From: Bolinopsis microptera
Lineage: Eukaryota; Ctenophora; Tentaculata; Lobata; Bolinopsidae
DNA: 64,000 bases
Direction: 5' to 3'
Assembly: GCF_026151205.1 (NCBI RefSeq)
Contig: NC_087077.1
Span: 16,218,983 to 16,282,982 of the forward strand
The notes under the pieces are model-generated. The model saw only the letters and a list, made by a program, of their open reading frames with translations, had not been told where the DNA came from and did not search any database. This document shows, piece after piece, positions 5,576 to 51,316 of this stretch (its first letter is position 1; each line of letters begins with the position of its first letter). Position numbers and translations under genes: made by a program.

Positions 5576-5700
5576 TAAACACAACTCAAGCAGGTTATAG
5601 AGATGCCCAGGGTAAATTTCACGCCCCCGCCCCCTCCCCTTTAATTGATCTAAATGTTTGAATCTAACATGAGACCTGCAGGTAGAGATGCCCAGGGTAA
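5576..5700 (+). repeat. Short local duplication around the 5.7 kb exon
   Basis: The segment TAAATGTTTGAATCTAA...AGAGATGCCCAGGGTAAAT occurs twice, at about 5560-5613 and 5650-5702. The second copy contains the start of the exon described next. In the first copy the same ATG is followed by a C-rich run instead of the coding sequence. Confidence 0.7.
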
Positions 5701-5791
5701 ATGTCACGGCGTCAGCACTGCGGAACCAGCGCCGTATGGCTGCGGAAAGGGAGCGGGTTAAGAAACTGAAGAGGAACGCAAATGTATCACC
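5688..5791 (+). CDS. Alternative 5' exon 1a of an unidentified large gene (first coding part)
   Basis: An open exon from ATG to a GTGAGT donor at 5792, coding 34 residues plus two bases (phase 2). The peptide is basic and Arg/Ala-rich (MPRVNVTASALRNQRRMAAE...). The segment RMAAERERVKKLKR is likely helical. An AG acceptor-like site (CCTGCAG) lies just upstream and an in-frame stop sits at 5670, so the exon may carry a short 5' UTR or may itself be spliced from a leader. It joins in frame to the exon at 6697. The pair ends in phase 1, like all other first exons in this window. I do not recognise the protein. Confidence 0.55.
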
Positions 5792-6696
5792 GTGAGTAGT
5801 CTTTATAGGTGTTTGTTTTGTCAGGAGTATTTTCAAGAATTTGTATTTTTGCGAGTTTGTCTTTTTGTAGTATGTTAGTAAATAGTTTGCTTTTCAAAAA
5901 TGAATTTCTCGGAACTATTTACATGAAAGAGTGTGTATGTTTAGGAGTAGTTTTTTAAGGGTTTCTCTATTAAGAATAAGCTCAACTACTAAGAATAAGC
6001 AACTTACAAAGTTACAACGAAGATAAGCCAAAATAATACTGAAATATTTTACTTTTCATTCAGCACGCCACATTTTAGCCCTAAAAACGATCGGATAAAG
6101 TACCAAGAAATCAGGTTTCTTTATGTGACAGATACAAATTCATGAAGGGATCAATTAATCTTTGTGTCAGATACAAATTCATAAAGGGATCGATTAATAA
6201 TTATTAATCGTAACCTTTTATAAATGCGTTAGATATAAATAAATAGAGGGATTATTTAATATTTAATTGACCGTCTGATTCTCCAATTTTATTAGATTAA
6301 GATTATTGCCAGTACAGAGCGTGCCCTTCTTTTAAACTGATTGAGCTAATTGCGGGAATTTTTTCTTTTTACAAATGTAACTTACGCAACTGCTTTATAC
6401 TAGTCAGATGTTCGGGTATTTGGTTATTGTTGACATCATTTGTGATTGAATGATAGTACGGAGGACGAACAATCAGTTCGGAAAATTTTAATTTTGTATA
6501 AGCGGAGGATGGCCATGATGTAATCTTGAAGACGTCATCCTATCCGATCAATACAGACTGATTTGTTTAAAATAAATACAGTTGATATTTTATGTAGTAA
6601 TACTCAATATTGAATCAATATTAATTAGGTAAACCAATAAAATTTCAATAAAATAGGTTAAACAGTGAAGCTGAAACTAAAACGTAATGATTTCAG

Positions 6697-6767
6697 GGAC
6701 CCTGTTATAGTAGCGGACGACCCCTTCAGCTTCAACGTTGGTGGACTACTCATCAAGGACGTTCAAG
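6697..6767 (+). CDS. Alternative 5' exon 1b, spliced after exon 1a
   Basis: A 71-base exon between a good acceptor (GATTTCAG) and a GTCAGT donor at 6768. Joined to the exon ending at 5791, the frame continues without a stop: PDPVIVADDPFSF then NVGGLLIKDVQ. It ends in phase 1, the phase shared by the other first exons. The DPF motif recurs in the 10.3 kb exon (GDPFDLDE). The GGLLIKD stretch slightly resembles a segment of SLC4 transporters, but that is too short to support an assignment. Confidence 0.5.
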
Positions 6768-8260
6768 GTCAGTGAAAATATGTTGAAAATTATACTTCGT
6801 ATATAAGATTTTAAACAAAATGCTAATAAAGAAACGTATTATAAATTGAAGCAAGGTATATAATTGGTTTTTATTTTGGATCGTTGAATGATAATTCTGT
6901 GGTAATGAAAATTATGACTTGTATATTGAATGTGCGAGGGCTATAATCTTTGTTTACGACTGGTACAGCTTTTCATGTACCCTCTCCGCCGGCCCGTCTT
7001 CTCGTTTATCTTCCCCGACGGCCTGGTTACCAACAATTACGGTCTAATTCATTGAACAGATGATGGGCAGTGTCAGACAATAAACTCTCACAGTCTCACC
7101 AGTGCTTGTAATTGCCGTGTCGTTTTGCGACCAGGCCGGCAATAAACAGGCAAAGCTGATGTTGTATGAGTAACCCTTAACACATTTAACTCCTCATCTA
7201 TACGGATACTACTATACCTTGCTTCTTGATTCATTTCACAGACTCTGCCGCTAGAAGTCTGCTGCTAGGACTCGTAACTAAGCAAAACATTGTTTCTTAA
7301 TTTTGTTCACTAACTTTACAACTGTAGTCGTTGTGTTTGTTTGTCAGAAGTTGTTAGCATCGCGTGCTGTTGGTAGATATCGGACTGTATCACACATTGC
7401 CGGATTATATTTATATCTTTATGAATTTCTGCATAAAGTTAGTTGTATGATGGTGGACTTTGGTTGCTCCTTCAGAGCCGCGTGAAACGACTAATCTACT
7501 TTCGGTCAAACAATTTTGATGATGAACTACTATACTATACTGTACAGAGTATTTAATATCGCCATAAACTCTGCAGTTTTTGTGAATACTCCACTACACA
7601 ATGGATCATGTACCGTTCATCTGAATCCACTCTGTATACTTACAATTAAAAGCAGATTATAAACTAATTCGTGCCAAGAGAAAGGATGCCGCATTCTATG
7701 CTACTATAATAACACAGCATGCCGCATTCTGCGTTACTGCTAGATAATAATAATTCGCAGATTAGCATCTTAGGCTGAACTGTCACGTACCCTCATTATA
7801 ATGAGGGATACAATGATCATTGATCAATGGTTATTGGTCAATTTGATTTATTGGAGACAATCATTTTCGGTTCGACGAAATTGTTGAACAAATCATTTCA
7901 ATCAAATCATTGATCAATTGTGAAATTGTATAGTTTTAAACAGTTCGGTGAAAAGCGACCATAAATGATTTATGATAAAAAGGTTTAAACTGCTAGTTTT
8001 TTTAACAGGAGATCAGCGAGGAGTTTAATATATTTAAAGGAGAGAACAGATTATTTTAACAGTTTAAAAAATGTATGCGGTTGATATGTTCGGACCTTCT
8101 CCTACTCTTGCTGTTGTCGGAATTCTGCTCAACTGTTCCATGGTCTTCTATTGGGAGTAAACTGCTCCTAAAATAAGCTGTTCCATGATTATGCGATTGA
8201 TGATCTGAGCTAATTTCTGGTAGACTACTACCGGTACTTACGAAATGGCTATTTTCGTAC
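6768..8260. other. Intronic/intergenic, no gene seen
   Basis: No supported coding or RNA feature. Just upstream, at about 6120-6260, a degenerate 55-bp unit is repeated about three times around AGATACAAATTCAT(A/G)AAGGGAT. Confidence 0.45.
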
Positions 8261-8263
8261 TCT

Positions 8264-8800
8264 TATCAAAATAATTGCAGCGAGTCCGTTAACTATGCGT
8301 ACCCTAATCATCAGTAATTGCAGCGTTTCGTTTGTCATTAACATTACTCTTTGATCATCGCCGAATCATCACTTTCGTGTTCTATTTAGCATCATCAAAA
8401 TAATTGCAGCACGTTCGGCATATATACGAAACCCAATAATCAGTAATTGCCGCATTTTGTTTGCTATTAAAGTATTCATGTTACAGTGTGCAAACCCTCC
8501 CTGATCATAAGTAGATACTTGAAACGATTCCTAGATAGCAACTTTCGTCCAAAAATCAGCCTCGCAAAAATAATTGCAGCAAGTTCGTTACGTATCCGAA
8601 AGTCGAAACCCACTTATCAAATAATTGCAGCACTTCCCTTGTCATTGATATTGCTATCAGCTCATCAGCGGACATTTGAAACTCCTGCTTGACAACAACT
8701 TTCGTACTTTATTCAGTCTCAAATAATTGCAGCGAGCCCGTTATACACGTAAGACCTACGTAATATAAGCGTAACATCAAATAATTGCGAAATCAAATAA
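8264..8800 (+). repeat. Degenerate ~130-170 bp tandem repeat marked by AAATAATTGCAGC
   Basis: The core AAATAATTGCAGC followed by a variant of (G/A)AG(T/C)(C/T)CGTTA recurs at about 8270, 8400, 8570 and 8723. Between these lie shorter AGTAATTGC(A/C)GC or AAATAATTGCAGC boxes and ACTTTCGT(A/G/C)C boxes in the same order. Four diverged higher-order copies are visible. No frame is conserved between them. Confidence 0.7.
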
Positions 8801-10299
8801 TCACAAACTCTCCTTCTTATCAACTGCTCTCTCTTTCTCTGTTGTAGCTGCAGTAGACACTTGAACGATTGCTTCACAACACAACTACTCCGCCACAACG
8901 ACAGTGTAATTGTTTTGAATCACAACCGTTTAACTGCACCTTGTCATCATGACCCGACCTCTTTTTGTTCCCAATCTAAAACCACACATGTGTTCGGCAA
9001 GATTTAAATGATTTCCCCGTCCTACCTTTAGTGAGAGGAACCCGCACGAGCTCTCCCATTAATTGCCGGATAAAAGAACGCACAGTGAGAAGATTGGCCG
9101 GACAAAGATAGCCCTCAGCTCAGGATGCCCTCGTGGTTGGCTTTTGTTTAACTCCATGTAAATTTATCATCGCTTGTATTTGAGTATTTGTGCTCCTTTG
9201 ACACGGGGATATCCGAATTGCCATTACTTCCGCCCTGTGAAATGCAAGGTACCACCAAGTGCCATACGGCTTCGAACTCTCGATTCTAATTGCCACTTGC
9301 CAGACTCGTTCCACTTGAGTCGGAGGAGCTGGAATGTTTTGATAATAATTCCTGTCACCGTGCTATTCTGAGCATCACAGCATATGCTTAGTTGCATGCG
9401 ATCCTACTATGATCTAGTGCTGGACGGTCGCATTGTTTAGGATTCGGTCATTGATTTCAGTATATTTAAGCATTCCTAAAACAAGGATTACTATTAGCCA
9501 CTATAGGGACGATGCCAGACCCGCCCTAGGGACGATGGCAACCCGTCCAAGGGAGGCCAGACCCGTCCTAGGGACGAATCCTTACCCAAACCACGTCATC
9601 ACCTGGTCCTTATGTCTAAGATGGGATAATATTGCGAAGGAGGGAGCTGCCAGCTTTTATTGTGACTTGTGAGAAGTGATTTGGTGAATACTGAATAGTG
9701 CTGCATGGTGATGAGATGATCAAACTGTGTCAAATCTTAACTTGCCGCAATTTTTCGTAACATTGCCCTTTAGAAATGATTCATTGCGTTTCAAAAAGTA
9801 TCCGGTTTAATGATTTAACTTTAAGGCCAATTATCACTTTAAGGTAACCAGACATGTGAATTTGTTTGAAACTTTTCAAAAGAAATGCTATCAAAAATGT
9901 AACTTCTATGACGTGTTTTCGCAACTTTTGTCTTGTGTGAAATGTTTGATTTCTGCAGGTTTCCTCAACAACCCATTGAATAAATTGTATGTAATAAATT
10001 GTATGTAATTAAAATATATAATGCAATAAAAATAAAGAGTAAACAATAATTTGCCAGGGCCCAAATAATAATATTCGTATATATACGACATAATAAACTG
10101 ACATCATCGCTCAATTAAAACTCGGCTTATTTCAAAGAACTGACATATGTTAGTTCAGTACCGTTGATTTTGTCATTTGTGCTAAAGGCAAACGTTTAAA
10201 AATCAAGAAAGTGTTCGGACATTTAAATTTGCTTGCCATTTATTTGTTTCCACCATTCAACCACCCTAAAGTAACATCAATTTTCCCTAAAAGAAAACC
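8801..10299. other. Intronic/intergenic, no gene seen
   Basis: Contains a short GC-rich patch at about 9510-9580 with a repeated AGACCCG(C/T)CCTAGGGACGA-like word. The open frames here are short and lack coding character. Confidence 0.4.
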
Positions 10300-10489
10300 A
10301 TGTTCCACGCCAACTTAAAGATCAAAAAGTACAAGAAGCCAAAGAGGAAATCGAATCATTCGGGAAGTTTCAACGAAACTCCCGTACAGAAAGATGATGA
10401 GTTTCTAGGGAACCTGCTGAGAAGATCTGAAGTACCCAGGTTCAGTGTGACTGGGGACCCATTCGACCTGGACGAGGCAGATTACGAAT
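10300..10489 (+). CDS. Alternative first exon (10.3 kb) of the same unidentified gene
   Basis: ATG to a GTGAGT donor at 10490, coding 63 residues and ending in phase 1. The start is very basic (MFHANLKIKKYKKPKRKSNH). It is followed by LLRRSEVPRFSVTGDPFDLD and an acidic end (EADYE). LLRRSE resembles a basophilic-kinase site. The strong donor, the abrupt charge pattern and the phase shared with eight other exons support a real coding first exon. No transmembrane segment or known domain is present. Confidence 0.65.
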
Positions 10490-11529
10490 GTGAGTAGTTA
10501 TTCAGTTCTATCTTTTACACATCTGTAACTTATAAGGCTGTTTATTACGATAAAATGATAATCTGTTAAGGTGTTTAATACACTGTGCAGGGTACTGTAC
10601 GTGTGTACGTGTGTACGCGTGTATGTGTTTGATATGTCAAGATTAGTTGCTTCAACATCCTGTATCAACTGACATCTGTTAATATGCGTGCCCCAGCCCT
10701 CACCTGCCTTGACATCCTTATAGCACTGCATGCCTATTTGCCCGCTATAAGTTATAATACAGCCACAGGGTGGTCATTTACTCTGGGCCACCCTGTACAT
10801 TCTGATCTCGATCCTGGACCTATGGGACAAATTTGCTCCTTAAAACCAAAACCAAAACCAATCCACCATGATAGGCCTCCAATTATTACTGATGGCCTTT
10901 TAGTTGTAGTATGGCCTACCAAAATGCACCCCAGGATGTTGCCATTCTGTGGCTCTCTCCTCCGCCTAGATTCACTGCAATTATATAATTATGTGAAAAC
11001 TGTATACCCATATTCAACCCATATTTCCGCGAGTATCATTAGAGTTATACGCAATTTCCCTGCAAGTAATATGGATTATTGAAAGTCTGTCTCTCCTGAT
11101 CCTGGATAGCATTGTATCAACCTATAACTGGATCGGAGGAGCACGTTGTGCAGCAGAATCTAGATGAGATTACAGCACCTACCACTGCAGATTAAAACCG
11201 GATCAGTAGATACAAGCCGGCAAACAGCCGGAGAAATTACCTTTTGACTCAGATCTCCAGGAGCAGACAGAGCTACAATTAGACGTAGGAACAATCTGGA
11301 CGGATGTGGTATTTTTAATATTCTAATGGCTGGTAAATGATATCAGTAAAACCACTACCATATGGGCTAGTTTATACTTAAATGTACTCTCTAGTTTCTC
11401 TCTCTAGTTTCCGTTTGATTCGTTTGTCAGGCTCTGGGAAATCTAAGTACAGGAATCATACAATCATACCGACCATTGTCATAGCTTCGTAACGGTAAAC
11501 AAAAGACTGGATACAGAAGAAGCAGGAAG
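10490..11529. other. Intron, no gene seen
   Basis: An open frame at 10684-11082 has no recognisable domain and no splice logic. It includes a KPKPKP run from a short repeat. I treat it as chance. Confidence 0.4.
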
Positions 11530-11917
11530 ATGCCAATGTTTGACTACTCTGTCCCTCGCTCCCAGCGGACCAGCACAGCCGGGAGCAAAAGTTCCAGCCA
11601 TAAACACAACAACAACGTTTCTCCGAAGCCTCCTCCCCGCCTGGTGAGACGTGACTCCACTTTAAGGCGTCTCCCCAGGTCTAACAACGCATCAATAAGA
11701 TCTCATGACACTTCTCTGGGTCCTTCCAACGGTGGTAACCATGACAACGGTGACACGTACCAACCTCTCGGGAGTGTTTCCTCGGGGAGGAGTGAGGATT
11801 TCCGGAACATGTCTGCGGCAGTGTGCCCTTTTGATAATGTGTGGAGGGCTAGTCAGGATTCCCGGTTGGATAGTAAATTCAAGAAGCTCACTATTTGGGA
11901 GAAGGGATGTCAATTCG
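11530..11917 (+). CDS. Alternative first exon (11.5 kb) of the same unidentified gene
   Basis: ATG to a GTAAGA donor at 11918, coding 129 residues and ending in phase 1. It is a long, disordered, Ser/Arg/Asn-rich tail. It contains a KPPPRLVRRDSTLRRLPR stretch with an RRDS kinase-type site and a PPP motif. The C-terminal part is more ordered (FDNVWRASQDS, FKKLTIWEKGCQF). Beyond the donor the frame becomes hydrophobic and AT-rich, as expected of intron. Together with the exon at 34864, it is one of the two longest of the array. Confidence 0.65.
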
Positions 11918-13291
11918 GTAAGATATTCAGATGTATCACTTTTTGTATTGCTATTAATTGTAAATATTGTATTTGTATGTATACAATATTGGCAATTGTT
12001 AGTAGTTATTATTAGTACCTGATTATTAATGGTTAATACATATTACTAATAATTATCAATATTATGTTATACCTTGGAGGGAATTCAGCTTTAAAAGCAA
12101 CTAATTAAAGAATGTAATATAAGTATAACTATCAGCGGAAATGAAAATTGTTAATGAAAATGTTTGAATCTATACCATGTCTATTGTCTAGTGCCTACCA
12201 GTGCTTTTACACCACAACATGTTACACGCCAGAGCATTACTTATTCAATCTTGATCCTTTTGTAATAATCTGTTGTCTGGCGATGCTGTCTAGCAATACT
12301 TTTACAGCTATTGTACTCGGGCAGTGAGTCATGATTAAGTCATAACATCACTCAGGATCAGTTGCTAACCATTAAAATACAAATAATTAAAAACCGAAAA
12401 AAAGCGACAGGTGAAATTTCCAAGATTCATTACCTTTTTGAATCGTTTAATCGTTTAATTGTGGGGATTGGGGACCATGCGTATACCATTATAAATGAAG
12501 GATTCTCTAGACGATGCCAAGGGCACGCTAGTTCACAAAACTTTAGCTAACTAACACATCTACTAACCTACAACTGCACTGCACACTATCCTATGGGGTT
12601 GTGTAGCGTTATTAGATAGGTTAGAGTTATTATCATATAATCTAACACTGTGTGACTGTGAATTAAATCAAAGTTTGTGTTTCGTCCTCGATTAAACCAC
12701 AATACGAATTGTTATTCATCCAAAAATAATGAAAGACTCCTGTGGATGAAGATTCTATATCGCATGAGATAAATTATTCCAAAACAGTGCCGACATATGT
12801 ATCATTTTACAGCAACATTGAAATTTTGCAACCGTTTTAATTTACTTTTATAGTTTTATGTCTAGTACCAAGGACTGCGTCTCGTATCGCGTCACGTAAC
12901 ACGGTCTGCGTAGCTAGCTAGGCGGCACGTACTCACGTACTCACGACACTCACGTACTACAGTGCGAGATGGGGTCTTATGTCCTAGCTAGACGGCACGT
13001 AACGCGTCTAGTAATCGATTACGTGTTATGTACCGTCTAGCTGAGCTGGGGTCTAAGATAATCTTCGTCCAAGTTCTGTACCCACACGTGATACCACGGC
13101 TCTACAAAAACTTCAGTTAATCTACCGACGTACCTATAATCTATATCACTTGTATGTATATATTATATATAGTACACTGCTCCATGAGGCTGTACTGTAT
13201 AATACCTTGATGTGTGTAACGGTGTGGGACCAGTCTTTATCATCGTCTTCTTGTACTGTTTGATATGAGATGTGGTACTGTTTGATATGAG
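11918..13291. other. Intron and 5' region of the nested sulfotransferase
   Basis: AT-rich up to about 12860, then an unusually CpG-rich stretch (12860-13060) with repeated TAGCTAG(A/G)CGGCACGTA words and an inverted repeat (about 12985-13045). The latter lies about 250-300 bases upstream of the sulfotransferase start and could belong to its promoter; that is inference. Confidence 0.4.
12985..13045. repeat. Imperfect CpG-rich palindrome upstream of the sulfotransferase
   Basis: AGCTAGACGGCACGTAAC on the left is mirrored by GTTATGTACCGTCTAGCT on the right around TCTAGTAATCGATTACGT. A further copy of CTAGCTAGGCGGCACGTA lies at about 12914. Confidence 0.65.
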
Positions 13292-14476
13292 ATGTGGTAT
13301 CGTTTTCGTCGCCGTATAACCATGAAGAACGCGTTGAGAATACTTCTCCATGTCGCGATTACTTCTTTTGTTATGTTTGAGTTGTCGTTGAAGTTCTTTG
13401 AACCGGATTGCTTGACCTGCTTATTTAACATATCCGACATCAAAATACCAACCATGTGGACTGAGTCACCTCCAACTAAACTGTCCGTGAAGCAGAGAGA
13501 CGCTGATGGTTCAGCTTCAGAGAGATACGTTGAACCAGACTTGGGTAGCTTGTCAGGAGAAGAGAGAGCAGATCTAGCGAGAACCCGGTGCAAGGAAGTA
13601 TACGGACCACACCCTAAACTGGAGAACTTGCAGTACCCTTTTGAGAACAGGGTGTTTCTAGCTAATAATGAGAAGCTGGCCTACTGTGCAGTTGCTAAAG
13701 CGTTCAGTTCTAATATCAAGAGGGTAATGATGTTCCTCTCCCGTTCAGGCAGGAATCTAAAGAAACTTAAAACTGACATTAGTCCTATAAATAAGATTGT
13801 GTACCCACACCAGCTTAACTTCTGGCCTAACTCCACGATATTAAAACACTATTCAGACTCAGGACAAACTCAGGTCTTAAAGGACTATTATAAAATTGTT
13901 GTTGTAAGAGACCCCATCTTGAAAGCAATCTCAGCATACAGGGACAAGTTCTTCAGTAAAACTGATGACAAATTCCATCAGTACTTCAGACAGGCAACGG
14001 GGAAGGCTATCTGCGTTGCAATGGCAAATTATAGGGAGCGAGAGGACGCGAACAAGTACCTAAAATCAGCAATAGTTGACTGCGGTAGAGACCCTGCCTA
14101 CATGGACTTACAAGCGTTCCTTGTCTGGTCCTTTCTCGTTCCTGATGAATTCAGACCTCATGCTGCAGATAATCTAAACCCACACTGGGCCCCCTCCATC
14201 CCTATATGCAGGATTTGCGACCCCACTGTGAACTATCACTTTATTGGGCACTTTGAAAGAGGCCTGAGAGACATCTACGCTATATTTGATCGAGCAAAAT
14301 GGGATTTTCCGTTTCCCAGTGTAAGCGATACTTCTATCTCAGAGGAAGAAGCTGTGGCGTTCAAAAAGGAAGTTGACTCTTTGCCGGGGGAACTGGTTAG
14401 GGAGCTTAACCAGGCCATGGCGGCTGAACGGTACATCCTGGGTTATACTAATGAGAGACCGCTAATTAACCGCTAA
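13292..14476 (+). CDS. Carbohydrate sulfotransferase, Sulfotransfer_2 family (HNK-1/chondroitin-type, intronless)
   Basis: A 394-residue frame with no intron. The first ATG is at 13292; Met11 (13322) is an equally good start. It has a short basic N-terminus, then one hydrophobic segment (about residues 13-36), which fits a type II Golgi signal anchor. The lumenal domain shows family landmarks: CAVAKAFSSNIKR (132-144) in the place of the 5'-phosphosulfate loop, VVVRDP...SAYRDKF (203-220), which is the 3'-phosphate-binding motif of PAPS, then HWAP (298-301), a CRIC pair (306, 309) and YHFIGHFE (315-322). It likely transfers sulfate from PAPS to a glycan in the Golgi. The loop has Ala-Lys where many relatives have Pro-Lys. 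The acceptor sugar cannot be told. It lies inside the first-exon array on the same strand. The lack of introns could mean an old retrocopy or a naturally single-exon gene. Confidence 0.88.
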   Translation: MWYRFRRRITMKNALRILLHVAITSFVMFELSLKFFEPDCLTCLFNISDIKIPTMWTESPPTKLSVKQRDADGSASERYVEPDLGSLSGEERADLARTRCKEVYGPHPKLENLQYPFENRVFLANNEKLAYCAVAKAFSSNIKRVMMFLSRSGRNLKKLKTDISPINKIVYPHQLNFWPNSTILKHYSDSGQTQVLKDYYKIVVVRDPILKAISAYRDKFFSKTDDKFHQYFRQATGKAICVAMANYREREDANKYLKSAIVDCGRDPAYMDLQAFLVWSFLVPDEFRPHAADNLNPHWAPSIPICRICDPTVNYHFIGHFERGLRDIYAIFDRAKWDFPFPSVSDTSISEEEAVAFKKEVDSLPGELVRELNQAMAAERYILGYTNERPLINR

Positions 14477-15060
14477 TTAACCGTTAATTAACGGGGATTA
14501 AACCACTGGTTATTACGTTGGAATTAACTTTTCATGTTCATTATTGGAGGTGGATTAATGGTGGTCTTCGTAACACCTAGATGACGTTTGTGTTGTATTT
14601 ACTGGGTTGTTTTGATCAACATGATTTCTAAGGGTCAAGAGGTTCCAATTTAAATTATTACTTTATTTTATTTTTTACATTGTAGTCTTGATTTGAGTTT
14701 ACACTACAATTTAATGAGGCTTCACGTATGCATGAAATGAGAATCAAATTTACGAATTATTTATTCATTCATATAGTGATAAAGCTTTTACTAAAAGTCT
14801 CTAACTCCTGATTGAGAAATTCAGTGGGATATCTGCTTTTTAGATATCAAATTCCAAATTTCAAGAAAGCTCAAATTTTCTACGAATCCAAAAGACACTT
14901 ATCAAACTGATTTGGAAGAATTTTATTGATAGACCAGGACGTAAAATCTTTCAATCGAGCAAAAGATCTATAGACTACATGATACTTAGTCGATTAGCAT
15001 TATCTACTTAACATGAGTATGAGGAGCCATTACATTTAACAAGGTACAGGTATAATGATA
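14477..15060. other. 3' flank of the sulfotransferase, no gene seen
   Basis: AT-rich. A TTAATTAACCG word is repeated directly at and after the stop codon. No clear further element. Confidence 0.4.
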
Positions 15061-16984: not shown

Positions 16985-16988
16985 ACTA

Positions 16989-26296: not shown

Positions 26297-26423
26297 ATGT
26301 ACCGAAGGAGAAGCAGCATAGCTAGACCTACCTTGTCCGGACTGAGCAACAAAGGTAGCAGAAGAGGAAGCAAGCTCCCTTCAATCAATGATGAAACTGA
26401 AAGCAAGAGCCATGGTAAACTAA
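26297..26423 (+). CDS. Alternative first exon (26.3 kb) of the same unidentified gene
   Basis: ATG to a GTGAGT donor at 26424, 42 residues plus one base (phase 1). The peptide starts MYRRRSSIARPTLSGLSNK and continues GSRRGSKLPSINDE. It is clearly paralogous to the exon at 32998 (YRRRSS, then S-N-K, then SRRGS(K/R)LPSI). RRRSS and SRRGS are basophilic kinase-type sites. A second possible donor (CATG|GTAAAC at 26415) is also phase 1, so use of either keeps the frame. Confidence 0.7.
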
Positions 26424-29125: not shown

Positions 29126-29169
29126 CTTAGTTCTTTGGAGATTGGTTTTTTCAACCATCCAGACAATGG

Positions 29170-32997: not shown

Positions 32998-33136
32998 ATG
33001 TCAATGGCTCTCTTCTACAGACGGCGAAGCAGCGCAGCCAACGCCACCCAGTTGGCTGCGTTCTCCAACAAGAACAGTAGGAGAGGAAGCAGGCTGCCTT
33101 CCATCAGTGATGATGGCAACAACCTCGAGAAACTCC
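32998..33136 (+). CDS. Alternative first exon (33.0 kb) of the same unidentified gene
   Basis: ATG to a GTGAGT donor at 33137, 46 residues plus one base (phase 1). Starts MSMALFYRRRSSAANATQLA and continues SNKNSRRGSRLPSISDDG, ending LEKL. Its core (YRRRSS...SNK.SRRGSRLPSI) matches the exon at 26297, including the KL just before the donor, so the two arose by exon duplication. The upstream sequences are not obviously similar, consistent with separate promoters. Confidence 0.72.
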
Positions 33137-34863: not shown

Positions 34864-35257
34864 ATGACGGCCGAGTTTATGTCCGGACTTATTGTGGGTC
34901 CTGTAGAGGTAAACCATGCTCAACTCATGATCCAACGTCGCGCTTCAGCACAAGAAAAGAAGTCCAAAGCGACTAGCATTCGTTTCAAAGCTTTAGCATT
35001 CGAAGGTGAGGCGTCCACCTCGAGCAGAAGAGAATCCAGAAGTAACTCTAGTCCACATCTCCAGTCTGGATCAGCCAGCACTACCAGTGGAATGATGAGG
35101 TCGTTCAGGAAGAGTATAAGAAACAGGATGTCTCAAGGTCAGAGGTCGAGGCGGAGATCTGCAGGGGTCCGTCCAGACCGCTCCATGCCGAATATAAAGT
35201 TCCCTCTTGGTGGGATTGCTGGGGTGTACGATATCAGCAGACTAATCTTTGGAAAAG
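34864..35257 (+). CDS. Alternative first exon (34.9 kb) of the same unidentified gene
   Basis: ATG to a GTATGA donor at 35258, 131 residues plus one base (phase 1). Begins MTAEFMSGLIVGPVEVNHAQ then LMIQRRASAQEKK. The middle is a Ser/Arg-rich disordered tail with RRES and RSRRRSAG, and the end is ordered (GGIAGVYDISRLIFGKG). The first 28 residues match the exon at 36912. The end segment TACGATATCAGCAG is repeated just past the donor (35277), giving a second possible donor in another phase. Confidence 0.72.
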
Positions 35258-36911: not shown

Positions 36912-37203
36912 ATGACAGCAGAGTTCATGGCAGGATTCATATATCCTATCAAGCCAAACACGAATCAACTGTTGATACAATCAAGAAGTGGCTTTAAAAA
37001 GAGAAGCTTGAGCACCAGTCCACGGCCGGACAAATCCGGCTTGGACATGATGTCGTTCCAGAACATCAGAGACAGGGTTTCGCAGAGTTTTGAAACACAT
37101 ACTGGACGAGAAGCAGATGAGGACGAGGAGTCTTTGTACGGAGATGAGGCGTTACCTCTAATGGGGGGAAATGAGGATCATGTTAACGATATCACCATAT
37201 TAG
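36912..37203 (+). CDS. Alternative first exon (36.9 kb) of the same unidentified gene
   Basis: ATG to a GTAAGG donor at 37204, 97 residues plus one base (phase 1). Begins MTAEFMAGFIYPIKPNTNQL then LIQSRSGFKKRSLSTS. It is a paralogue of the exon at 34864 over the first 28 residues (MTAEFM-G-I, N--QL-IQ-R). After a Ser/Arg-rich part it turns acidic (EADEDEES...) and ends in NDITIL. KKRSLS is a basophilic kinase-type site. Confidence 0.72.
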
Positions 37204-41390: not shown

Positions 41391-42602
41391 GAATTAGTCC
41401 AATATGATATGTAAATGCCGATCGATACCGTAGCAGCATAAACTTCCCAGTACCTGCAATTATAATCATTATATCTTACACTTTTAGCAGTGCAACATCG
41501 TGATCATATCCAGCTCCAACACGTATTTAACCAGCAAATCTTGCAATAAATTTCACAAATGTCACAAATGTCACAAACATAACTATCCGAGTATCCGATA
41601 TCCTGCCGTCAACACAGTGATATTCGCCGTTTCCGATAAACAGAAATTTGACAGGCTCCCTCTTCTCATGAGTTATCTTCTTCTTTCAACTGCTTGCAAC
41701 TTGTAATGTAACCTTCTAGACTATAATACTATAATAACTGTGTTTTATCACTATTAATGCTCGTGTTTTGCCACTTCTGATGTAAAATTGTTTATCATAT
41801 AATACAAATTCCCGTCTTTTAATGCTCGTGCTGTCGTGCGTACTAAGATACGCGTTAGAGTTTGTTGGCCGTATTTTGTAGCAAAGTTATGGAGATCAGA
41901 TCAAAGTTGTAGAACTAAAAGTTACAATGAACTTCTCGCCGGAATTCCAGTCATACCTCTTCGACTTCTTGAGACTGTTGGTACCAGATAAATAGCATTA
42001 GTACCCCTGTCAGTACCACCGACATAATCTCCGTTGAGTAACCTTCCCACGGTTACTATAGTCATGCGGTTGCTATGGCTCTATGGTGTCCGTTTGAGCG
42101 TCTCCGTATCCCTATTATGCCTTTCAATGAGGATTCATGGAGCATGCCTATCATCTTAATACTGACTTCCTGATTTCAATGTCCCAGCTTTTCATTAAGT
42201 CATTAGTAAGAATGAATATTCTTTACTTTGAAAGCAACTATTGTCCAATGCAACTCATATGGCTCAATCTATATTGTTCAGGTCTGAACTTAAACTTGTC
42301 TTGTGTTAGCCGTCTTTAAACTATTAATGCCACCTGACAGTGATCTACCAATCATCTTTCTCTTTCTAGTAATGAACGTGATTTGATTCAGAATTTCATT
42401 ATGATGCATGATGATCATCTGTCTCTGTCAAAAATCAATCGTTCTGCATTCCAACTTCCTAAACATAGACTAGCCAGAGGAAATCTAGAAATGAAAACAA
42501 CACAGTGAATAGTCTCGCACTGTCTACTATAAAATCCATAGTGTTGCAGTTTTTCAGTGTTAATCTTTGTTTCACTCGATCTGCAGGGACACATGTTGTA
42601 AG
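41391..42602. other. Intron, no gene seen
   Basis: Short frames only. A three-fold CACAAATGT run at about 41557. Confidence 0.4.
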
Positions 42603-42886
42603 GGAATGTTTCACTTTGGTTTCACTTTGGTTTCACTTTGGTTTCACTTTGGTTTCACTTTGGTTTCACTTTGGTTTCACTTTGGTTTCACTTTGGTTTC
42701 ACTTTGGTTTCACTTTGGTTTCACTTTGGTTTCACATTGGTTTCACATTGGTTTCACTTTGGTTTCACTTTGGTTTCACTTTGGTTTCACTTTGGTTTCA
42801 CTTTGGTTTCACTTTGGTTTCACTTTGGTTTCACTTTGGTTTCACATTGGTTTCACTTTGGTTTCACTTTGGTTCCACTTTGGTGA
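42603..42886 (+). repeat. 12-bp minisatellite (TTTCACTTTGGT)n
   Basis: About 24 copies of TTTCACTTTGGT, nearly perfect, with CACATTGG variants at four places. Because the unit is a multiple of three and free of stops, all three plus frames stay open (Phe-Thr-Leu-Val and Ser-Leu-Trp-Phe-His-Phe-Gly patterns). I regard those frames as non-coding. Confidence 0.95.
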
Positions 42887-43933
42887 CAAGGGATACGACT
42901 GTGTTTCACTTTTAGATGGCTACCTGTGTGCCGCGAGGATCTTGCTTGTCCCTACTACCTAGTACCTAGTGTAATGGGGTCGCGTAATCATTTGGAACCC
43001 CCCCTCCCCCCTCGGCTGATTACGTAATACTAACATGTGAACAACCCCTTATGGTACTATCTTACTATAGACTTGTTAAAGTAAAACCCTGATTAGAGAC
43101 TGGAGTACCCACCAGTCTAGTAACGTACTATCTGGCGTTATGTTTTTAGTAGATCCTAGAATCACTGTTGTTTTAGCTAATAGTGAGAGCTACAGCTAAC
43201 GTACTATCTGACGTTAGTAAATCCTAGAATACCTGCTGTTTTAGTTGGTTGATTATCTTCGTTCGAACAAAGTCTGAAAGTCGGTAGGTATTTAGTTTTG
43301 GTCCAGTGGGCAAGATAGGAAACCCAAGGTGCTGACGGCGGGTTTGATCTGATCTCCAAACTTCATAACTAGCGTTCTATTAGAGTCACTTCAAATTCCA
43401 TCATAACAGTTAAACCTAGATATGAAGATATCTTGGCTTCTAAAAACCTAATAAATGTGCAATACTTCATTTAACACGCCCATTCATACTTTATTAGTGA
43501 ATATTACTACTAGGAAACAATCTGGAATATAGGTTGGTCTACAATATGACGCAAACAAATGCAGCCATACCTCTGTCGAGTAAAGCTGGGCACAAAAATC
43601 TCGAAATTATAATAGAAAGACACTAACAAGTTGAATTTATTCGCTGCTGCAGTTTATATCAGGTATACCAATAGCCTCTTCTATTTTCTCCTTTATTTCC
43701 GATGTTGGTTCCAACATACTACAAGCATGCTGAACTAGTATTAGCAGTGCTGACCGAGTGGCCGGGACATAGTACTACAGTAAAGGCCAGGCTGTATTAA
43801 TAATTGAACAATTGAGCTGCGAATGTGTATAGTTTATCATTCTTCCAACTCGATTGTTCAACTCGGCCGGGAATTATTCTGTTGTACAGTAATACCCTGA
43901 TTTAACACGATGTGTGGGTGAACGGAGCCAGCT
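42887..43933. other. Intron, no gene seen
   Basis: A duplicated short phrase (AACGTACTATCTG(G/A)CGTTA) at about 43123 and 43198. Nothing else. Confidence 0.4.
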
Positions 43934-44747
43934 GCGGTAAATCGGGGTTTGAAGTAAATCGGGGTTTGCAGTAAATCGGGGTTTGCAGTAAATCGGGGTT
44001 TGCAGTAAATCGGGGTTTGCAGTAAATCGGGGTTTGCAGTAAATCGGGGTTTGCAGTAAATCGGGGTTTGCAGTAAATCGGGGTTTGCAGTTTATCGGGG
44101 TTTGCAGTAAATCGGGGTTTGCAGTATATCGGGGTTTGCAGTAAATCGGGGTTTGCAGTATATCAGGGTTTGCAGTAAATCGGGGTTTGCAGTATATCGG
44201 GGTTTGCAGTAAATCGGGGTTTGCAGTATATCGGGGTTTGCAGTAAATCCGGGTTTGCAATAAATCGGGGTTTGCAGTAAATCGGGGTTTGCAGTAAATC
44301 GGGGTTTGCAGTAATTCAGGGATTGCAGTAAATCGGGGTTTGCAGTAAATCATGGTTTGCAGTAATTCAGGGTTTGCAGTAAATCGGGGTTTGCAGTAAA
44401 TCGGGGTTTGCAGTAAATCATGGTTTGCAGTAATTCAGGGTTTGCAGTAAATCGGGGTTTGCAGTAAATCGGGGTTTGCAGTAAATCGTGGTTTGCAATA
44501 AATCGGGGTTTGCAGTAAATCGGGGTTTGCAGTAAATTGTGGTTTGCAGTAAATGATAAATCGTGGTTTGCAGTAAATCGGGGTTTGCAGTAAATCGGGG
44601 TTTGCGGTAAATCGGGGTTTGCAGTAATTGAAATTCAGGGTTTGCAGTAAATCGGGGTTTGCAGTAAATCGGGGTTTGCAGTAAATCAGGGTTTGCAGTA
44701 AATCGGGGTTTGTAGTAAATCGGGGTTTGCAGTAATTCAGGGTTTTT
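43934..44747 (+). repeat. 17-bp minisatellite (CAGTAAATCGGGGTTTG)n
   Basis: About 48 units. Variants carry TATATC, ATTCAGGG or ATCATGG, and a few units are interrupted (for example at 44551 and 44630). Read on the minus strand it makes long open frames with a 17-residue period (three units), interpreted as artefacts of the repeat. The plus strand has a G4 run per unit. Confidence 0.95.
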
Positions 44748-45799
44748 ATTGTGCACTTTACGTACCAACTTTAAATCCCACTCCCATTTGATAGAAATTT
44801 GATGGCTGCAGCATCAATTTAAGCTCACTTTCGGCCAAAAACATGCAATCTGCATGAACGTATCGTTGTAAGATAAAAAACAGCGCGTTTGCCAGAACTA
44901 TAGTTATCTTTCACACCGCCCCTACTTTCTGAGCACTTCTTATTTCTGCCAGTTAATTTCACAATACTTACTCGCTTTGAGATACTCCTCCTGCATACTT
45001 GGCACATGGCACATGGGCCTATTATTTGATATGCTTTAATTTATCTCAGACTACTTGTTTTTCTCTTGTATCTGTTGGATACTGCTTAGTATTGCCACTA
45101 ATTCGCAATTGCCCAACCGTTTCTTTTGTCACAAATGACATCCCTTTAGATGGATCCCATGGTTAGATTTCCAAATTGCTCAACCATTATGACTCATGCC
45201 CAGATAGATTTCATGTGGCCTATAGGGAGTCCAAACTGAATGTGTACTACTAATTGACCCGTCCAGTAGTCCTCCATTCATAAGTTGACAATTTGTAAAT
45301 CGTGCGAAAGAATTTTTTTCCTTTGTGAACGCCAGCGATTCATAACTTTAGGGCATCTTTTAGTTTTTCTCCCATAAATTCCTAGTTTCCAAATCTATGA
45401 CAAAATTATATATCATATCTGTATATCATGAAAATAATGACCCTGAGTTGCAAGCTTGCTTTTAGACGGTCTAATGAAGACCAACTGACATGTTTAGAAA
45501 TGAAACAGAAGCTTGGCATATTTAGAGTCCAGATTTTCGTTCGTTTAAGAACTTCTGAACTTCTTTTTTTGAGAGATTGCCAGCTTGAAATTTAGATTTA
45601 GATTTATCCCATATACTTACGACAGCCTGCACTGTAATTATTTACCCGATTATAAGCCACTTTATTTTCGAAACTTAAGAGTTGTTGTCGTAGGTTGCGT
45701 ATTTTTGTTCAATGTTAAGTCAGTGTCTTTCAACCCTTGAATCTGTACTTCCTGACCCCCTAAAAAGGACCACGACTACTCAGTTGACGAGGACCTGAA
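44748..45799. other. Intron, no gene seen
   Basis: AT-rich; no supported feature. Confidence 0.4.
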
Positions 45800-45968
45800 A
45801 TGTCTCGGAACTTATTCTACCGACCCAGAAGACCTAGCAGAGTAAGTGAGACTGCTCACAGTAATAACAACGGGTACGGAGGAGGGAGGAGATGCTCGGT
45901 GCAGGAGAGGAAACCTCCAACCATCCTCGCGCCTCGTCATTCAGACATACTGAGACCGCGCCACTCAG
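45800..45968 (+). CDS. Alternative first exon (45.8 kb) of the same unidentified gene
   Basis: ATG to a GTCAGT donor at 45969, 56 residues plus one base (phase 1). Begins MSRNLFYRPRRPSRVSETAH and continues GGGRRCSVQERKPP, ending in a His/Arg-rich stretch (APRHSDILRPRHS). LFYR...R-S weakly recalls the LFYRRRSS start of the 33.0 kb exon. RRCS is a basophilic kinase-type site. Past the donor the frame is hydrophobic and intron-like. Confidence 0.68.
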
Positions 45969-48900
45969 GTCAGTTCATTAGGCTCTTTTATTACACTACC
46001 TTTAACCTTATATGGCATGGTATTGTTACCATAGTTACACTACCATATAGGGTAATGACATCCCCACATGATCCTCCGTTAGATATATATATATATATAT
46101 ATAATATGCGGTAGAATTAAAGTAGTTCTAATACTGATCGTACAGTCCAAAAAGGGTGATCAATTACTTGCATATTGGTGCATAATTTAGAGATTTAGGA
46201 TCAGCGATCGCAGCATGTTTATTATTTTATTGTTTCCTTAATGTTTATTAATATTAGTTACTTTTAAACCCCCACAATTTTTTACCCCGTGCGCGCAACG
46301 TGCAGGTTTTCACAACAAATGTTCATCCTACAATTCGTAGTACTTTTACTTTTGACTGCACACATCTGTACGGAACATTATATGTGTGACCAATGCATTT
46401 ATGTTGTACCGAAGTTAACTAAAACTTAAAAAGTAGTTACACTACCATATAATATAAGCCAATAATATGTTACTGTATTGAGTTTGTATAGAACTTACTT
46501 GCCATCTGCACTGTCTAGAACTGAAATTAAAACACCACAAATATGTTACGAAAAAAACTGAGAACTTGTGTTTAAACTCAAAGACTTAGAGTTCACCAAA
46601 GGTTTGACACGCCGTCCGGCGGCTCACTGCTCGTGTAATCTTAGGAGCCAGGTTCAGGATAAAACGGTAGCGGTCTCCATGGTTACCACCGTCTCCACGG
46701 TGGCGGTTTCAAGCCTCTACTAACGCACAACTTGTGAGCCTGCAAGTGCTCATACAGTGTAGTACGAGGGCGCAGAATATGGCTGTTAAATATCGGTTCT
46801 GTCATGTTTTCTCGACAGTGTGAATACTGCACTGCAAGGTGTGCAAATACAAGTTCATGTGCCGATACACCGGGGGATAGGAGTCCTAGTTACCATAGTT
46901 ACACGACTACAGTAGATAACCTGTATTCACACCACGTATACTTTCATCGCTGGGGAGTCTGCAAAAAGCAGCTGGGATATGCGCATTATTCAACTTGCGT
47001 ACATATAATACTCATATAAAGTACTGTAGTATCTGCATTCAGGAACCATCGAAAGGGTGGAACCAAGAGCTACGAGAACCGCGTATAGGAAACTTACGAC
47101 CTGACCTCGTAACTGGTAGTAAATGAAAACATACAACTTTTAACAAACGTTGCTAACCTTTAATCTCGATTACGTATCAATTTGGATTGAAGAGATTTAG
47201 AGAGCGATATTTACAATAGACGGGAAATCTCAACATCATTACTATCATAAACTGGCAGCTAGCCAGCCCCATCAATATTGATAATATCTTAACACTATAT
47301 AGACTTCAACGAAATTAATGAAAATCGGAGTTTATTTTACGAAAAACAATCTGTTTACATTCCAGAGATACCTGAATCATGATCTGCACCAAGCTGCTCA
47401 AAAACGATTACAGATTGGGGCATTACTCATAACCTGTATGGGAAAGTTTATTCCTTTTATACCTTTTTATAAAATGTAATCTACTTGCAGAGTTGGAGCA
47501 TTACTTCAGTGGTGTCCCTGCCAAGCACTGGTTTATGTCAGTGGTTTATGTCTCTAGAGTCTAGAGGTTATTATTCACACAAATCATAGCACAATATTAG
47601 AAAGTCTAGACACAATCAATGTGTCAGTCAATTCGGATGTGGAGACGTAATTGGGTAGATTCATACTGAGTGGAAGTTGATTTCAGGCTATTTTAACTGC
47701 AATACAATGTATTGCCATGTTAACTACAATACAATGCACTGGAGTCCAGGGGGTTGGGGAAGGGGGTAAATGCAATGATACGAGTGCATATTTGATATTA
47801 TACGAATAGTTGTCCCGGTGCCATGGTAAATGACATTGGTCTACGAGGCATTTCTGAGTAGAGCAGATGGAGATGCTGTGATTCGTGAAATTGACCTTGT
47901 TGATTTTGTTGATCTTGTTGACCTTAATGATCTTGATGACCTTGTTGACCTTGTGTGTTTGGCGAACATTTGGTTATACTCGTGTTCTGTTGCTTTAGTT
48001 TGACAGTTTAAGCTCGTACTAAATTGTAAGGTTTCACCTAATTCCATTAAAAGTTTAACTTTAAGCTAGTCACTAGTTTTTCGTATTACCAGAATTGCTG
48101 AAGTGTTACAGTGATTCTGGAAAAGTACGTGAATTTTTATAAATGTGAATTTAGCAAAATATTGACCGAATTCACAAGTTTTAAAAGTTATCGGAAGGAA
48201 AATATTGACTTAATAATAGTAAGAGTCGTGCATTATAGGCAAAATAAGTGCATAGTAACTATTTTCGAGTTAGTAGCAAAATCCGCCTTTTAATGAGTCA
48301 GTAAAATGCTGGTAATACAGATTTTTAACAGGAACCGGACAAACGCCCGTTTAACTGTTGCATTCGTCCTTTCGCTGGTATATCAGATTTTTCTTAAGAA
48401 AACAGTTGATATATTCTTAGTAACCACTCTAGTAGGTATCTCCCAGTTAAAAGGTATCTTATAGTGTGCTTCACAAAATGGCGACAAGCTCACGAGTAAT
48501 GGACACTGTGTTCGTTTGATGTTAACACTAAACTACACTTCATCCGTTATTACGACAGACACACAACTGAGTATTCCACCAGTGCCCTGGGAATGCAGGT
48601 TATTAAATTTATCTTTTGACAGTCACAAAGCGATTTTGGAATACCGCAGAACGGAAGTATATAAACCGTATCTCGTAACAGCTCCGGGGGAACCTACAGA
48701 TACAGCTTGGTATTCTGGGTATATACAGTATTTTGGTATGTACTGCAGCTGTTTAAAGTTCTATACTCAGGTGAATTAGAACCTTCGTTTACTCTAGGGT
48801 TCAGAGCTTACTCGATACTTCCTTGCTTCTTTTTCTGAAGGCCTAACTGCTTCACGCCCCTAATAACGGTTTGTGATGTGGGTAGTCCGTAGAGTCCGGA

Positions 48901-51123
48901 GTACGTGACCAGGACTGCACATGAACTCTAGCCACCGAATGAATTGCAGACTCATGCAGGTGTAGGGGGCCTCTAAGTGGGACATGTCATCACGTCCGAA
49001 CTGACAATTACTTGTTCAGATTACCTCCAAATTCCGCCTCTCTTTCTCTTGACTTTCATATCTTCCTTTCTAGCCAAGGTTCAGACCTTGCATGAACTTA
49101 ATAAACGTAGACTGGTTGTGCTCTGTTGTTTTAGTTGTAAGTTTGATTAGAAAAGTTAAAGTTGAAGTCATGGCAGTCGATTATATTATGGTTATTAGCT
49201 CTAATCTTACGATCCAACTTAGCTTGAGATAGTTGACTCTTATTCGCGCTAACACACACAACTATACCGGTAGTTCAAAATTTACATAAACATATTATAT
49301 GTTTTTTATATATATAACTATAAATATATATAACTATAAATAACTATAAATAGCAGCTACTAGAGTATAAAGCTTGGCAAGAACCTTCGTAGAGAGATAG
49401 TGCGAGGCAGCGACACCCACAACCCTGCAGACACCAACACTTTTAACTGTCGTTTATAGAGGACAGTAATATCCACACGTTGCTGCTCGTTTATTGCAGT
49501 TCTCTCTCCTTTCAGTGCAGTGTTGAGTAAACTGCCTCTGAGATAATCCGGCTATGCACCTGCGGCGTCATATTAGTATTATGAAGGAGTCATCTCGCTT
49601 TTGCTGGGTAACTGCACGCCCGATTTTACTCCTTCATTATGTGTCGGCAATACGGCGTTTTTTACGCTTTGTTTACGTTTACAGGAGATTGGGGGTGTGA
49701 CAAATAATGATTGTAAATAGTTGACTGGGTTAGTGTTCGTGTGTTCTGATACTTGAGCTATTGAGCCAAGTTTTCCTTCCACTGGTCTGATAAAACGTGC
49801 GAGCTTGGCGACAGAAAACTTAGTTTAGTCAGCCTGAACTAGTACTCTGTACAGTGTACATGTCGTAAGTAGTTGTCTGCAGACAATTCGTTTTATTAAT
49901 TCAGTTTGCTTCCTTTCTGGTGTTTAACTCGTTGGAGACGTTTTTTGCGGCTTGTGCATCAATAAAAACTAGATTTTACATGACGTTGCAGTCAGTGATA
50001 TAGTTATAATAACATGCAGTAATAATCTAATTCGATAGTAATACGATAATATCGTGTGAGATCAATGAGCGTTGGTCACGAAGATCAAGCACTTTTTGTC
50101 TTATGACTCTTAAAATGGTTAAATTTAAATGATATAAAAGTTGAAATCGGTTTATTTGCGACTTGAATTACAATATGTACCTTTGTATTTCGTCTACTTT
50201 TAATTTACAGCTTATGGCTAACTTTTGAGCGTTGTAAAATGAATGCACTTTTCGTTTCGCCAACTTTTAGACTTTAGACACGCCCTTGTCTAGATCACAG
50301 CACTCTCCCTAACAGTTCCATACTGAGATCACTGTTAGTGCAGTCCCAAACCCTCCAAAATCATGAGTTCATCTGATCCTGCAAACTTCACGAACACATA
50401 CAGGCTACTTGACACTTGTGCGGCGATACTTCATGAGGATTAGAAAGTGTGAATTACACCTGCTTGACTGTCGACACTCTTGTCTTCTCGGCGTGCTGTG
50501 ATTGGTCAGATAATTTGCACGTGGGCAAGGCCATAGCTGGAGGATACTCCGGAGCTAAATAGCCGCAGTTGTATCTGCACAATGTTTATTGCCAGTGCCG
50601 GGTTGCGTTCTACACTGTTACGCTCTGTTTAGGGGGTGTGATACAAATGACGTTTGCTCCATATGCCAAAAAGGGTGGGGTTTTTTAACTGATAGGTGAA
50701 GGGGTTTAAAGCCAATTCATGAGGCATGGTTATTAGATAGTAAGTTAGGTATCTGGATGTTTCACCTTTACAGTTTTTTTTAAACAAAGCAACATTTTGT
50801 GGAAAGGGGTCCAAGCAATGTAATGGTGATGTAACTGGTGGTTGTTGGCCTGGCAACCAGGGGGTTAATAATTCTAAAATGTAGCTGTCAGCTTTTGTAA
50901 TTGCTCCTTTAGTTTAACGAATTCGATACACCTACTCTTCATTTACACTGTATAACGTCTGCATTCTGCAAGCAGTTTCTCCCTTTGCTTGCTTTGTTTC
51001 CCACGTCTTTTCTCATAAGATCCGTCCTGTCACCACATTGTTTCGTACTATTAGTATTGGTTTTAACACGAAACCTTCCTGATATAATCTGATATTCAAG
51101 GTGAAGACACTGTCTGACTCAAG
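45969..51123. other. Intron, no gene seen
   Basis: Holds an (AT)n run at 46085-46103, a GACCTTGTTGAT-type 9-bp repeat at 47893-47955, and an AACTATAAAT repeat near 49310-49350. Open frames (46804, 48516, 49579 minus) show no domain or splice support. Confidence 0.4.
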
Positions 51124-51316
51124 ATGCGAGGAGCTATTCACCTCTACATAAAGAAACCACATCAGAGTCCGGGAGGGCACAGCAGGAGATCCAACAGATC
51201 ACCCACTAAAACCTCTAACAGATCACCCTTTGCGTCCCCGAGAGAGTCACCGAGGAACAAGAGGTTTTCAGCGCTGGTGGACTTTGAAACGCTCGTCCCG
51301 GATCTCGATAAAATTA
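51124..51316 (+). CDS. Alternative first exon (51.1 kb) of the same unidentified gene
   Basis: ATG to a GTAAGG donor at 51317, 64 residues plus one base (phase 1). Begins MRGAIHLYIKKPHQSPGGHS, followed by an Arg/Ser/Pro-rich tract with three RSP steps (SRRSNRSPTKTSNRSP, SPRESPRNKR), then an ordered end (FSALVDFETLVPDLDKI). It is the last first exon seen before the right edge and so is probably nearest to the shared body of the gene. The SP sites suggest proline-directed kinases. Confidence 0.68.

What the first reader, a model, noticed from the sequence alone, without database searches (positions are those of the whole stretch)
5688..51316. Array of nine alternative first-exon units, all ending in phase 1, spread over 46 kb
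Nine units (5688+6697, 10300, 11530, 26297, 32998, 34864, 36912, 45800, 51124) each open with ATG, code a basic Ser/Arg-rich N-terminus and end at a consensus-like donor in the same codon phase. Eight single exons sharing one phase by chance is about 3 in 10,000 to 1 in 10,000, before counting the paralogy between exons. The simplest reading is one gene with many promoters and interchangeable N-termini, its body lying beyond 64 kb. This layout is known for genes such as PDE4/dunce and some channels and transporters; which one applies here is not known.
Basis: partly seen in the sequence, partly recalled or inferred. Interest (0 to 1): 0.88.

Follow-up and report, generated by a model that had tools for sequence, protein, structure and literature searches.

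The report
Calcium sensor with twelve interchangeable front ends
In a comb jelly, one calmodulin-like calcium-sensor gene carries about twelve alternative first exons spread over some 63 kb, so the same calcium-sensing core can be made with a dozen different N-terminal tails.

Summary
The shared body lies 5.9 kb beyond the window: a phase-1 acceptor (window coordinate 69940) and five exons encoding a calmodulin-like protein with four intact EF-hands. It is not PDE4. Three more first exons (65574, 67612, 68951) lie right of the window; all 12 end in phase 1. The genome is that of the comb jelly Bolinopsis microptera. Six of my 12 predicted isoforms equal NCBI isoforms X1, X4, X6, X7, X8 and X10 letter for letter: five named LOC134817069, X1 named myosin light chain 1-like. 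Length ranks of my 12 give exactly those numbers. Mnemiopsis, and unnamed sources, also join different N-termini to one core. RRxS sites, the PKA type, number 13 against 1.4 in shuffles, in 6 of 12 tails. Most likely this is a tandem variable-first-exon gene whose promoter choice sets where a Ca2+ sensor acts, as in KChIPs. Separate promoters and targeting are inferred. NCBI already lists such isoforms; my paper searches showed none describing them.

The parts
5688..5791 (+). Unit A, first coding exon (MPRVNVTASALRNQRR..); intron inside the unit is phase 2
   Evidence: isoform equals P0006 = NCBI isoform X7
6697..6767 (+). Unit A, second coding exon; ends phase 1
10300..10489 (+). Unit B first exon (MFHANLKIKKYKK..), phase 1
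   Evidence: equals P0003 = X6
11530..11917 (+). Unit C first exon (129 complete codons), phase 1; its 3' part matches the N-terminus of P0017
   Evidence: rank 2 by length fits X2 (inferred)
26297..26423 (+). Unit D first exon (MYRRRSSIARP..), phase 1; paralogue of E
   Evidence: isoform itself not seen in the database
32998..33136 (+). Unit E first exon (MSMALFYRRRSS..), phase 1; paralogue of D and H; a relative is read through in P0031
   Evidence: isoform itself not seen in the database
34864..35257 (+). Unit F first exon (131 complete codons, three RRxS), phase 1; paralogue of G
   Evidence: equals P0004 = X1, named myosin light chain 1-like
36912..37203 (+). Unit G first exon (net charge -6), phase 1; paralogue of F
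   Evidence: rank 3 fits X3 (inferred)
45800..45968 (+). Unit H first exon (MSRNLFYRPRRPSR..), phase 1; paralogue of E
   Evidence: equals P0005 = X8
51124..51316 (+). Unit I first exon (MRGAIHLYIKKP..), phase 1; counterpart in Mnemiopsis P0007. Units J, K, L and the five common exons lie right of the window and are listed in the full report
   Evidence: rank 5 fits X5 (inferred)

Best explanation
This is one gene of the comb jelly Bolinopsis microptera, NCBI LOC134817069. It has a tandem array of about twelve alternative first exons, A to L, over 5.7 to 69.1 kb. Each is joined by its phase-1 donor to one common acceptor at 69940 and to five common exons that encode a calmodulin-like, four-EF-hand calcium sensor. 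Shown: the exons, the phases, the common acceptor, and six complete isoforms that equal annotated ones. Inferred: each first exon has its own promoter; cell type or state chooses the promoter; and the tail, basic in 11 of 12, mostly disordered in the two that were modelled and rich in RRxS sites in six, decides which membrane, scaffold or partner the same Ca2+ sensor serves, with PKA able to switch that address. The array grew in part by exon duplication. The common exon begins with TA after the splice, so the junction codon NTA always gives Val, Leu or Ile and never a stop, whichever first exon is used.
For: Common phase-1 acceptor and EF-hand body. All 12 units in phase 1 with open frames through the body. 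6 of 12 predicted isoforms identical to NCBI isoforms X1, X4, X6, X7, X8, X10 on a contig of 20,932,313 bases, the length of contig C6 that holds the window; five carry the name LOC134817069, X1 the name myosin light chain 1-like. Length ranks of all 12 predictions reproduce those six X numbers, so X2, X3, X5 and X9 fit C, G, I and K. In Mnemiopsis two N-termini (I-type P0007, A-type P0008), both named ACHWQZ_G014036, carry the same body, 180 of 181 residues. Among proteins without an organism name, J-type P0013 and P0014 share 179 of 179 body residues with P0016, whose N-terminus differs, and P0011 and P0012 share 179 of 180. RRxS: 13 seen, 1.44 expected, 0 of 2000 shuffles; [RK]Rx[ST]: 16 against 2.94, 0 of 2000. 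Four canonical EF loops. In both models (J-type and A-type isoform) the core is seven helices with a long fourth one; the J tail is below pLDDT 50 throughout, the A tail nearly so with a low-confidence helix at 8-27.
Against: No transcript start data were available, so separate promoters are not shown; no shared upstream 8-mer beyond random was found (9 of 12 units at best; 20 random sets gave 8 to 11). Whether NCBI's models rest on RNA reads was not checked. The Bolinopsis isoforms of C, D, E, G, I and K were not seen as entries. RRxS sites are in only 6 of 12 tails, and D and E are duplicates of each other, so counts are not independent. Tail G is acidic. A search with six tails joined (B, D, G, H, K, L) found 3 proteins at E up to 1 among 2163 candidates, all Bolinopsis, so those tails have no demonstrated conservation. 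The N-termini of P0011, P0012 and P0015 match no unit beyond shuffles (563, 310 and 171 of 1000) and P0016 is marginal (10 of 1000).
Confidence: 0.85

Rival explanations
1. One long precursor RNA from a single upstream promoter, with the 5' exon chosen by RNA processing: spliced-leader trans-splicing in front of one of the units, then cis-splicing to the body.
For: Comb jellies add a trans-spliced leader to many mRNAs (leader on 56% of Iso-Seq reads in Hormiphora, called a lower bound; PMC8527503, passages read). All units found are on one strand in front of the body.
Against: The best acceptor-like site within 150 bases upstream of each unit scores no better than background (mean 9.7 against 9.4). 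But six true acceptors of this gene score only 8 to 13 on the same scale, so the test has little power.
Confidence: 0.13
2. Several unrelated genes whose first exons share a phase by chance, each with its own body.
For: At least one other gene-like frame does lie inside the array, a sulfotransferase-like one at 13286-14476.
Against: Six units are joined to one body in annotated isoforms; 12 of 12 in phase 1; paralogy among units; three sets of relatives elsewhere with one body and different N-termini.
Confidence: 0.02
3. The body works as a myosin essential light chain with N-terminal extensions, as NCBI's name for isoform X1 (myosin light chain 1-like) suggests.
For: Name of P0004; N-terminal extensions are known in MLC1 (recalled).
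Against: All four EF loops keep the Ca2+-binding pattern, whereas essential light chains have mostly lost it (recalled). The 60 sequences shown of 568 matched in the PDB are calmodulins, one calmodulin-related protein, or fusions that contain calmodulin.
Confidence: 0.06
4. A PDE4/dunce-type phosphodiesterase.
For: Layout alone; DPF or DPL motifs in units A, B and J recall PDE4 N-termini (recalled).
Against: Three PDE4 queries against 224 kb gave one weak hit, UCR2 at E 0.12; the true body is known.
Confidence: 0.005

Closest known systems
KChIP genes (Kv channel-interacting proteins, neuronal calcium sensor family)
   Same: EF-hand Ca2+ sensors with alternative promoters and 5' exons that put variable N-termini on a common core; 17 N-terminal variants over the family (PMC3973911, passages read).
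   Different: KChIPs are of the NCS family (PMC6104694, start of abstract); this core is calmodulin-like with four canonical loops. About twelve first exons lie in a single gene here, while the 17 KChIP variants are spread over KChIP1 to KChIP4.
Caldendrin / CaBP1
   Same: CaM-like sensor whose isoforms differ in N-terminus by alternative splicing (PMC4110014, start of abstract seen).
   Different: Three isoforms named there, against about twelve; described as part of a family that arose during vertebrate evolution (PMC6372560, start of abstract).
UGT1 and protocadherin clusters (tandem variable first exons)
   Different: There the first exon encodes a large functional domain (recalled); here it encodes a tail of 42 to 131 residues, mostly disordered in the two modelled.
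Calmodulin
   Same: Four EF-hands; best PDB relatives.
   Different: 39 to 46% identical to the calmodulins among the hits; extra N-terminal tail and NRGPPP C-terminus; 2 Met in the common part against 11 in calmodulin P0022 (counted by eye in the alignment), so the target-binding surface probably differs. Exons 73 to 84% identical to calmodulin lie on contig C11 near 10.97 Mb, apparently a separate calmodulin gene.

Membership tests
Multiple-variable-first-exon gene | Several first exons, same strand, spliced to one common acceptor | tested here: met
   by identity to annotated isoforms for 6 of 12 units, by frame and phase for the rest
Multiple-variable-first-exon gene | Same codon phase at all alternative donors and at the acceptor | tested here: met
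   12 of 12 units
Multiple-variable-first-exon gene | First exons related by duplication | tested here: met
   clear for 4 of 66 pairs (D-E, F-G, K-L, E-H), i.e. for 7 of 12 units; the other units show no clear relation
Multiple-variable-first-exon gene | A separate promoter for each first exon | not testable with these tools
   no start-site data; motif scan negative
Calmodulin-like EF-hand protein | Four EF-hands in two pairs with intact loops | tested here: met
Calmodulin-like EF-hand protein | Ca2+-dependent target binding | not testable with these tools
   needs protein
KChIP / neuronal calcium sensor | Degenerate first EF loop (recalled) | tested here: not met
   EF1 loop DRDGNDSIGTEE is canonical
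Myosin essential light chain | Mostly degenerate EF loops (recalled) | tested here: not met
   four canonical loops
PDE4 / dunce | UCR1, UCR2 and a phosphodiesterase domain joined to these exons | tested here: not met
   224 kb searched; whole-genome family searches for PDE4 did not complete

The most novel reading that the evidence does not exclude
A single Ca2+ sensor gene acts as an addressable module in comb jellies: promoter choice supplies one of about twelve tails, several of them PKA-switchable, so that Ca2+ and cAMP signals are combined at different sites in different cell types. Diversity that other animals spread over many EF-hand genes (KChIPs, CaBPs, NCS proteins) would here come from one gene, in a lineage that may be sister to all other animals.
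Probability: 0.3. Interest if true: 0.75.

Novelty: new variant of a known kind. Interest (0 to 1): 0.55.

Why it matters
It would be a case of N-terminal diversification of a calmodulin-like sensor by alternative first exons outside vertebrates, and larger per gene than the KChIP or CaBP1 examples seen here. Mnemiopsis, and several proteins from unnamed sources, share the core and some of the tails, so it can be tested by isoform-specific in situ hybridisation or single-cell 5' data in a tractable comb jelly. It also shows that codon phase plus paralogy, read from raw sequence alone, correctly predicted a gene body outside the window.

Tried and rejected
PDE4 was the first idea, prompted by DPF motifs in units A and B; rejected and then by the true body. 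Upstream acceptor scan: mean 9.7 against background 9.4; six true acceptors score 8 to 13, so it does not discriminate. Shared promoter 8-mers: none beyond random. Search with six joined tails: 3 hits at E up to 1 of 2163 candidates, all Bolinopsis; the database holds cluster representatives, and the length filter (0.55 to 1.75 times the query) just excluded P0031, so it is weak evidence of absence. Of the six motifs tried, PxxP, basic triplets and S/TP were not enriched (1455, 368 and 777 of 2000 shuffles reach the count); R..[ST] was weakly so (17 of 2000); the two PKA-type patterns strongly (0 of 2000). Paper searches: annotation identifiers, 0 papers; calmodulin, ctenophore, alternative first exons with two of three required (20 of 91 listed); calmodulin-like with alternative first exon and N-terminal (1 paper); Mnemiopsis with calmodulin-like and isoforms (1 paper): none listed is about this gene, judged from titles and starts of abstracts only. 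In PMC12221973 (Mnemiopsis chromatin loops) a term search found no 'calmodulin' and no 'alternative promoter' in the main text.

Full report
Where the window is. The window is positions 16218983 to 16282982 of contig C6 of a 264.65 Mb genome. C6 has 20,932,313 bases. Six NCBI proteins identical to my predictions come from a contig of exactly that length and are named Bolinopsis microptera. The organism is therefore the comb jelly B. microptera.

The observation. All nine units are real. Each is an open frame from ATG to a GT donor with one base left over. Unit A has two coding exons with a phase-2 intron between them. Donor match counts range from 5 to 8 of 9. The units are not uniformly basic: G has net charge -6 and B +1.

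The body. I read 100 kb to the right and 60 kb to the left. At 69940, 5.9 kb beyond the window, a good acceptor (CCCTTTTCAG) opens an exon that needs one base from upstream. Four more exons follow, and together they give a 180-residue protein plus the junction residue. It has four EF-hands with intact loops, and its best solved relatives are calmodulins (568 sequences matched, 60 shown). Three further first exons, J, K and L, lie between the window and the body. All 12 units end in phase 1. The common exon begins with TA, so the junction codon is NTA and encodes Val, Leu or Ile for any preceding base; all four bases occur among the 12 units. The junction residue is V, L or I in 11 of 11 relatives examined, P0007 to P0017.

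Parts right of the window, + strand, window coordinates continued (add 16218982 for contig C6). Unit J, 65574-65793, MPFLTLRRFRLRKK.., equals P0001 = X4. Unit K, 67612-67774, MPFFAIGRINKAIA.., donor AAG|GTTCGA, 6 of 9, the least certain unit; paralogue of L; rank 9 fits X9 by inference. Unit L, 68951-69092, MPFFAVGRLGKTL.., equals P0002 = X10. Common exons: 69940-70031 (linker YNKLKPDDPDK..), 70215-70340 (EF-hand 1), 70749-70862 (EF-hand 2), 71056-71117 (EF-hand 3), 71794-71944 (EF-hand 4, NRGPPP tail, stop).

Independent confirmation. A protein search with the unit E isoform returned 33 proteins from 228 candidates. Six are Bolinopsis isoforms: X4, X6, X7, X8 and X10 are named uncharacterized protein LOC134817069, and X1 is named myosin light chain 1-like; that X1 belongs to the same gene I infer from its body, its contig length and its number. 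They equal my predicted isoforms J, B, A, H, L and F letter for letter. Sorted by length, my 12 predictions take ranks 1, 4, 6, 7, 8 and 10 for exactly these six. If NCBI numbers by length, as the six visible ones do, then X2, X3, X5 and X9 are C, G, I and K; this is inference. C, D, E, G, I and K were not themselves seen as Bolinopsis entries. The six clusters hold 14 member sequences in all, of which only representatives can be read. Whether NCBI's models rest on RNA reads was not checked.

Relatives. In Mnemiopsis leidyi an I-type (P0007) and an A-type (P0008) isoform share 180 of 181 body residues and the same gene name. Among them J-type P0013 and P0014 share 179 of 179 body residues with P0016, whose tail is different, and P0011 and P0012 share 179 of 180. 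J-type tails also occur in P0009 and P0010, and a C-type end in P0017 (0 of 1000 shuffles each). P0031 carries an E-type tail, apparently read through from genomic DNA (79% identity over 19% of the query, E 1.4e-4; sequence). So 5 of 12 tails (A, C, E, I, J) have a relative in another source. Against this, P0011, P0012 and P0015 tails match no unit beyond chance (563, 310 and 171 of 1000 shuffles) and P0016 is marginal (10 of 1000). B, D, G, H, K and L found no relative outside Bolinopsis among 2163 candidates, a weak test. In the table identity falls from 71% or more (P0001 to P0017) to 46% or less (P0018 to P0029, calmodulins and the like; the remaining four hits are fragments or partial matches), so this core may be restricted to comb jellies; the search method would miss distant relatives.

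What the tails look like. AlphaFold gives a calmodulin-like core of seven helices, the fourth one long, with block means of pLDDT between 57 and 86, and tails mostly below 50 (mean pLDDT 57.7 and 58.5). Only the J-type and A-type isoforms were modelled; the A tail has one low-confidence helix at 8 to 27. RRxS occurs 13 times against 1.44 expected with composition kept; 0 of 2000 shuffles reach it. It is present in C, D, E, F, H and J and absent from the other six. D and E are duplicates, so the count is not of independent events.

How it most likely works. Shown: one body, many first exons that fit it, six of them joined to it in annotated isoforms. Inferred: separate promoters give different cells different tails; the tail fixes location or partner; PKA-type phosphorylation modulates it; the core reports Ca2+. 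The closest working analogue is the KChIP family, where alternative promoters give variable N-termini on an EF-hand core (PMC3973911, passages read). The closest layout is the UGT1 and protocadherin type of cluster (starts of abstracts). It is not a KChIP (EF1 is canonical), not an essential light chain by its loops, and not PDE4. The rival of one promoter with trans-spliced leaders deserves respect because comb jellies use such leaders widely (PMC8527503, passages read), and my acceptor test could not decide.

Novelty. NCBI's annotation already lists many isoforms, mostly under the name uncharacterized protein. My searches of the paper library listed no paper on it, judged from titles and starts of abstracts. 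As biology it is a new variant of a known kind.

Noticed in passing
13286-14476 (+): Single open frame of 396 aa with a Sulfotransfer_2 domain (E 3.6e-24), lying between first exons C and D: a probable nested gene.
   Followed up: partly
60754-61813 and 62941-64000, the second copy continuing right of the window: Perfect inverted repeat, 1060 bases 100% complementary, cut by the window end. The two copies carry frames that look like a Penelope-like reverse transcriptase and a GIY-YIG-like end (recalled resemblance); Pfam gives no match. It sits between first exons I and J.
   Followed up: partly
about -22415 to -21579 left of the window (L021:7585-8421): Voltage-gated K+ channel exon (Ion_trans E 8.4e-26, BTB_2 E 5.1e-6), about 27 kb before first exon A.
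   Followed up: partly
800-1127, 2711-3338, 42608-42884, 43933-44745: Long tandem arrays: TTTCTAA x47, a 14-base unit x47, GTTTCACTTTG x25 and a 17-base unit x47; frames open through the last two look like genes but are repeats.
   Followed up: no
G000 contig C11, 6344876-6356367: Eight matches 51 to 74% identical to parts of calmodulin within 11.5 kb, apparently several calmodulin-like copies in tandem.
   Followed up: no
about 92 to 104 kb right of window start (L011 to L013): Frames that repeat YNHT(N/D)CKNK again and again, right of the gene body; the DNA period was not measured.
   Followed up: no
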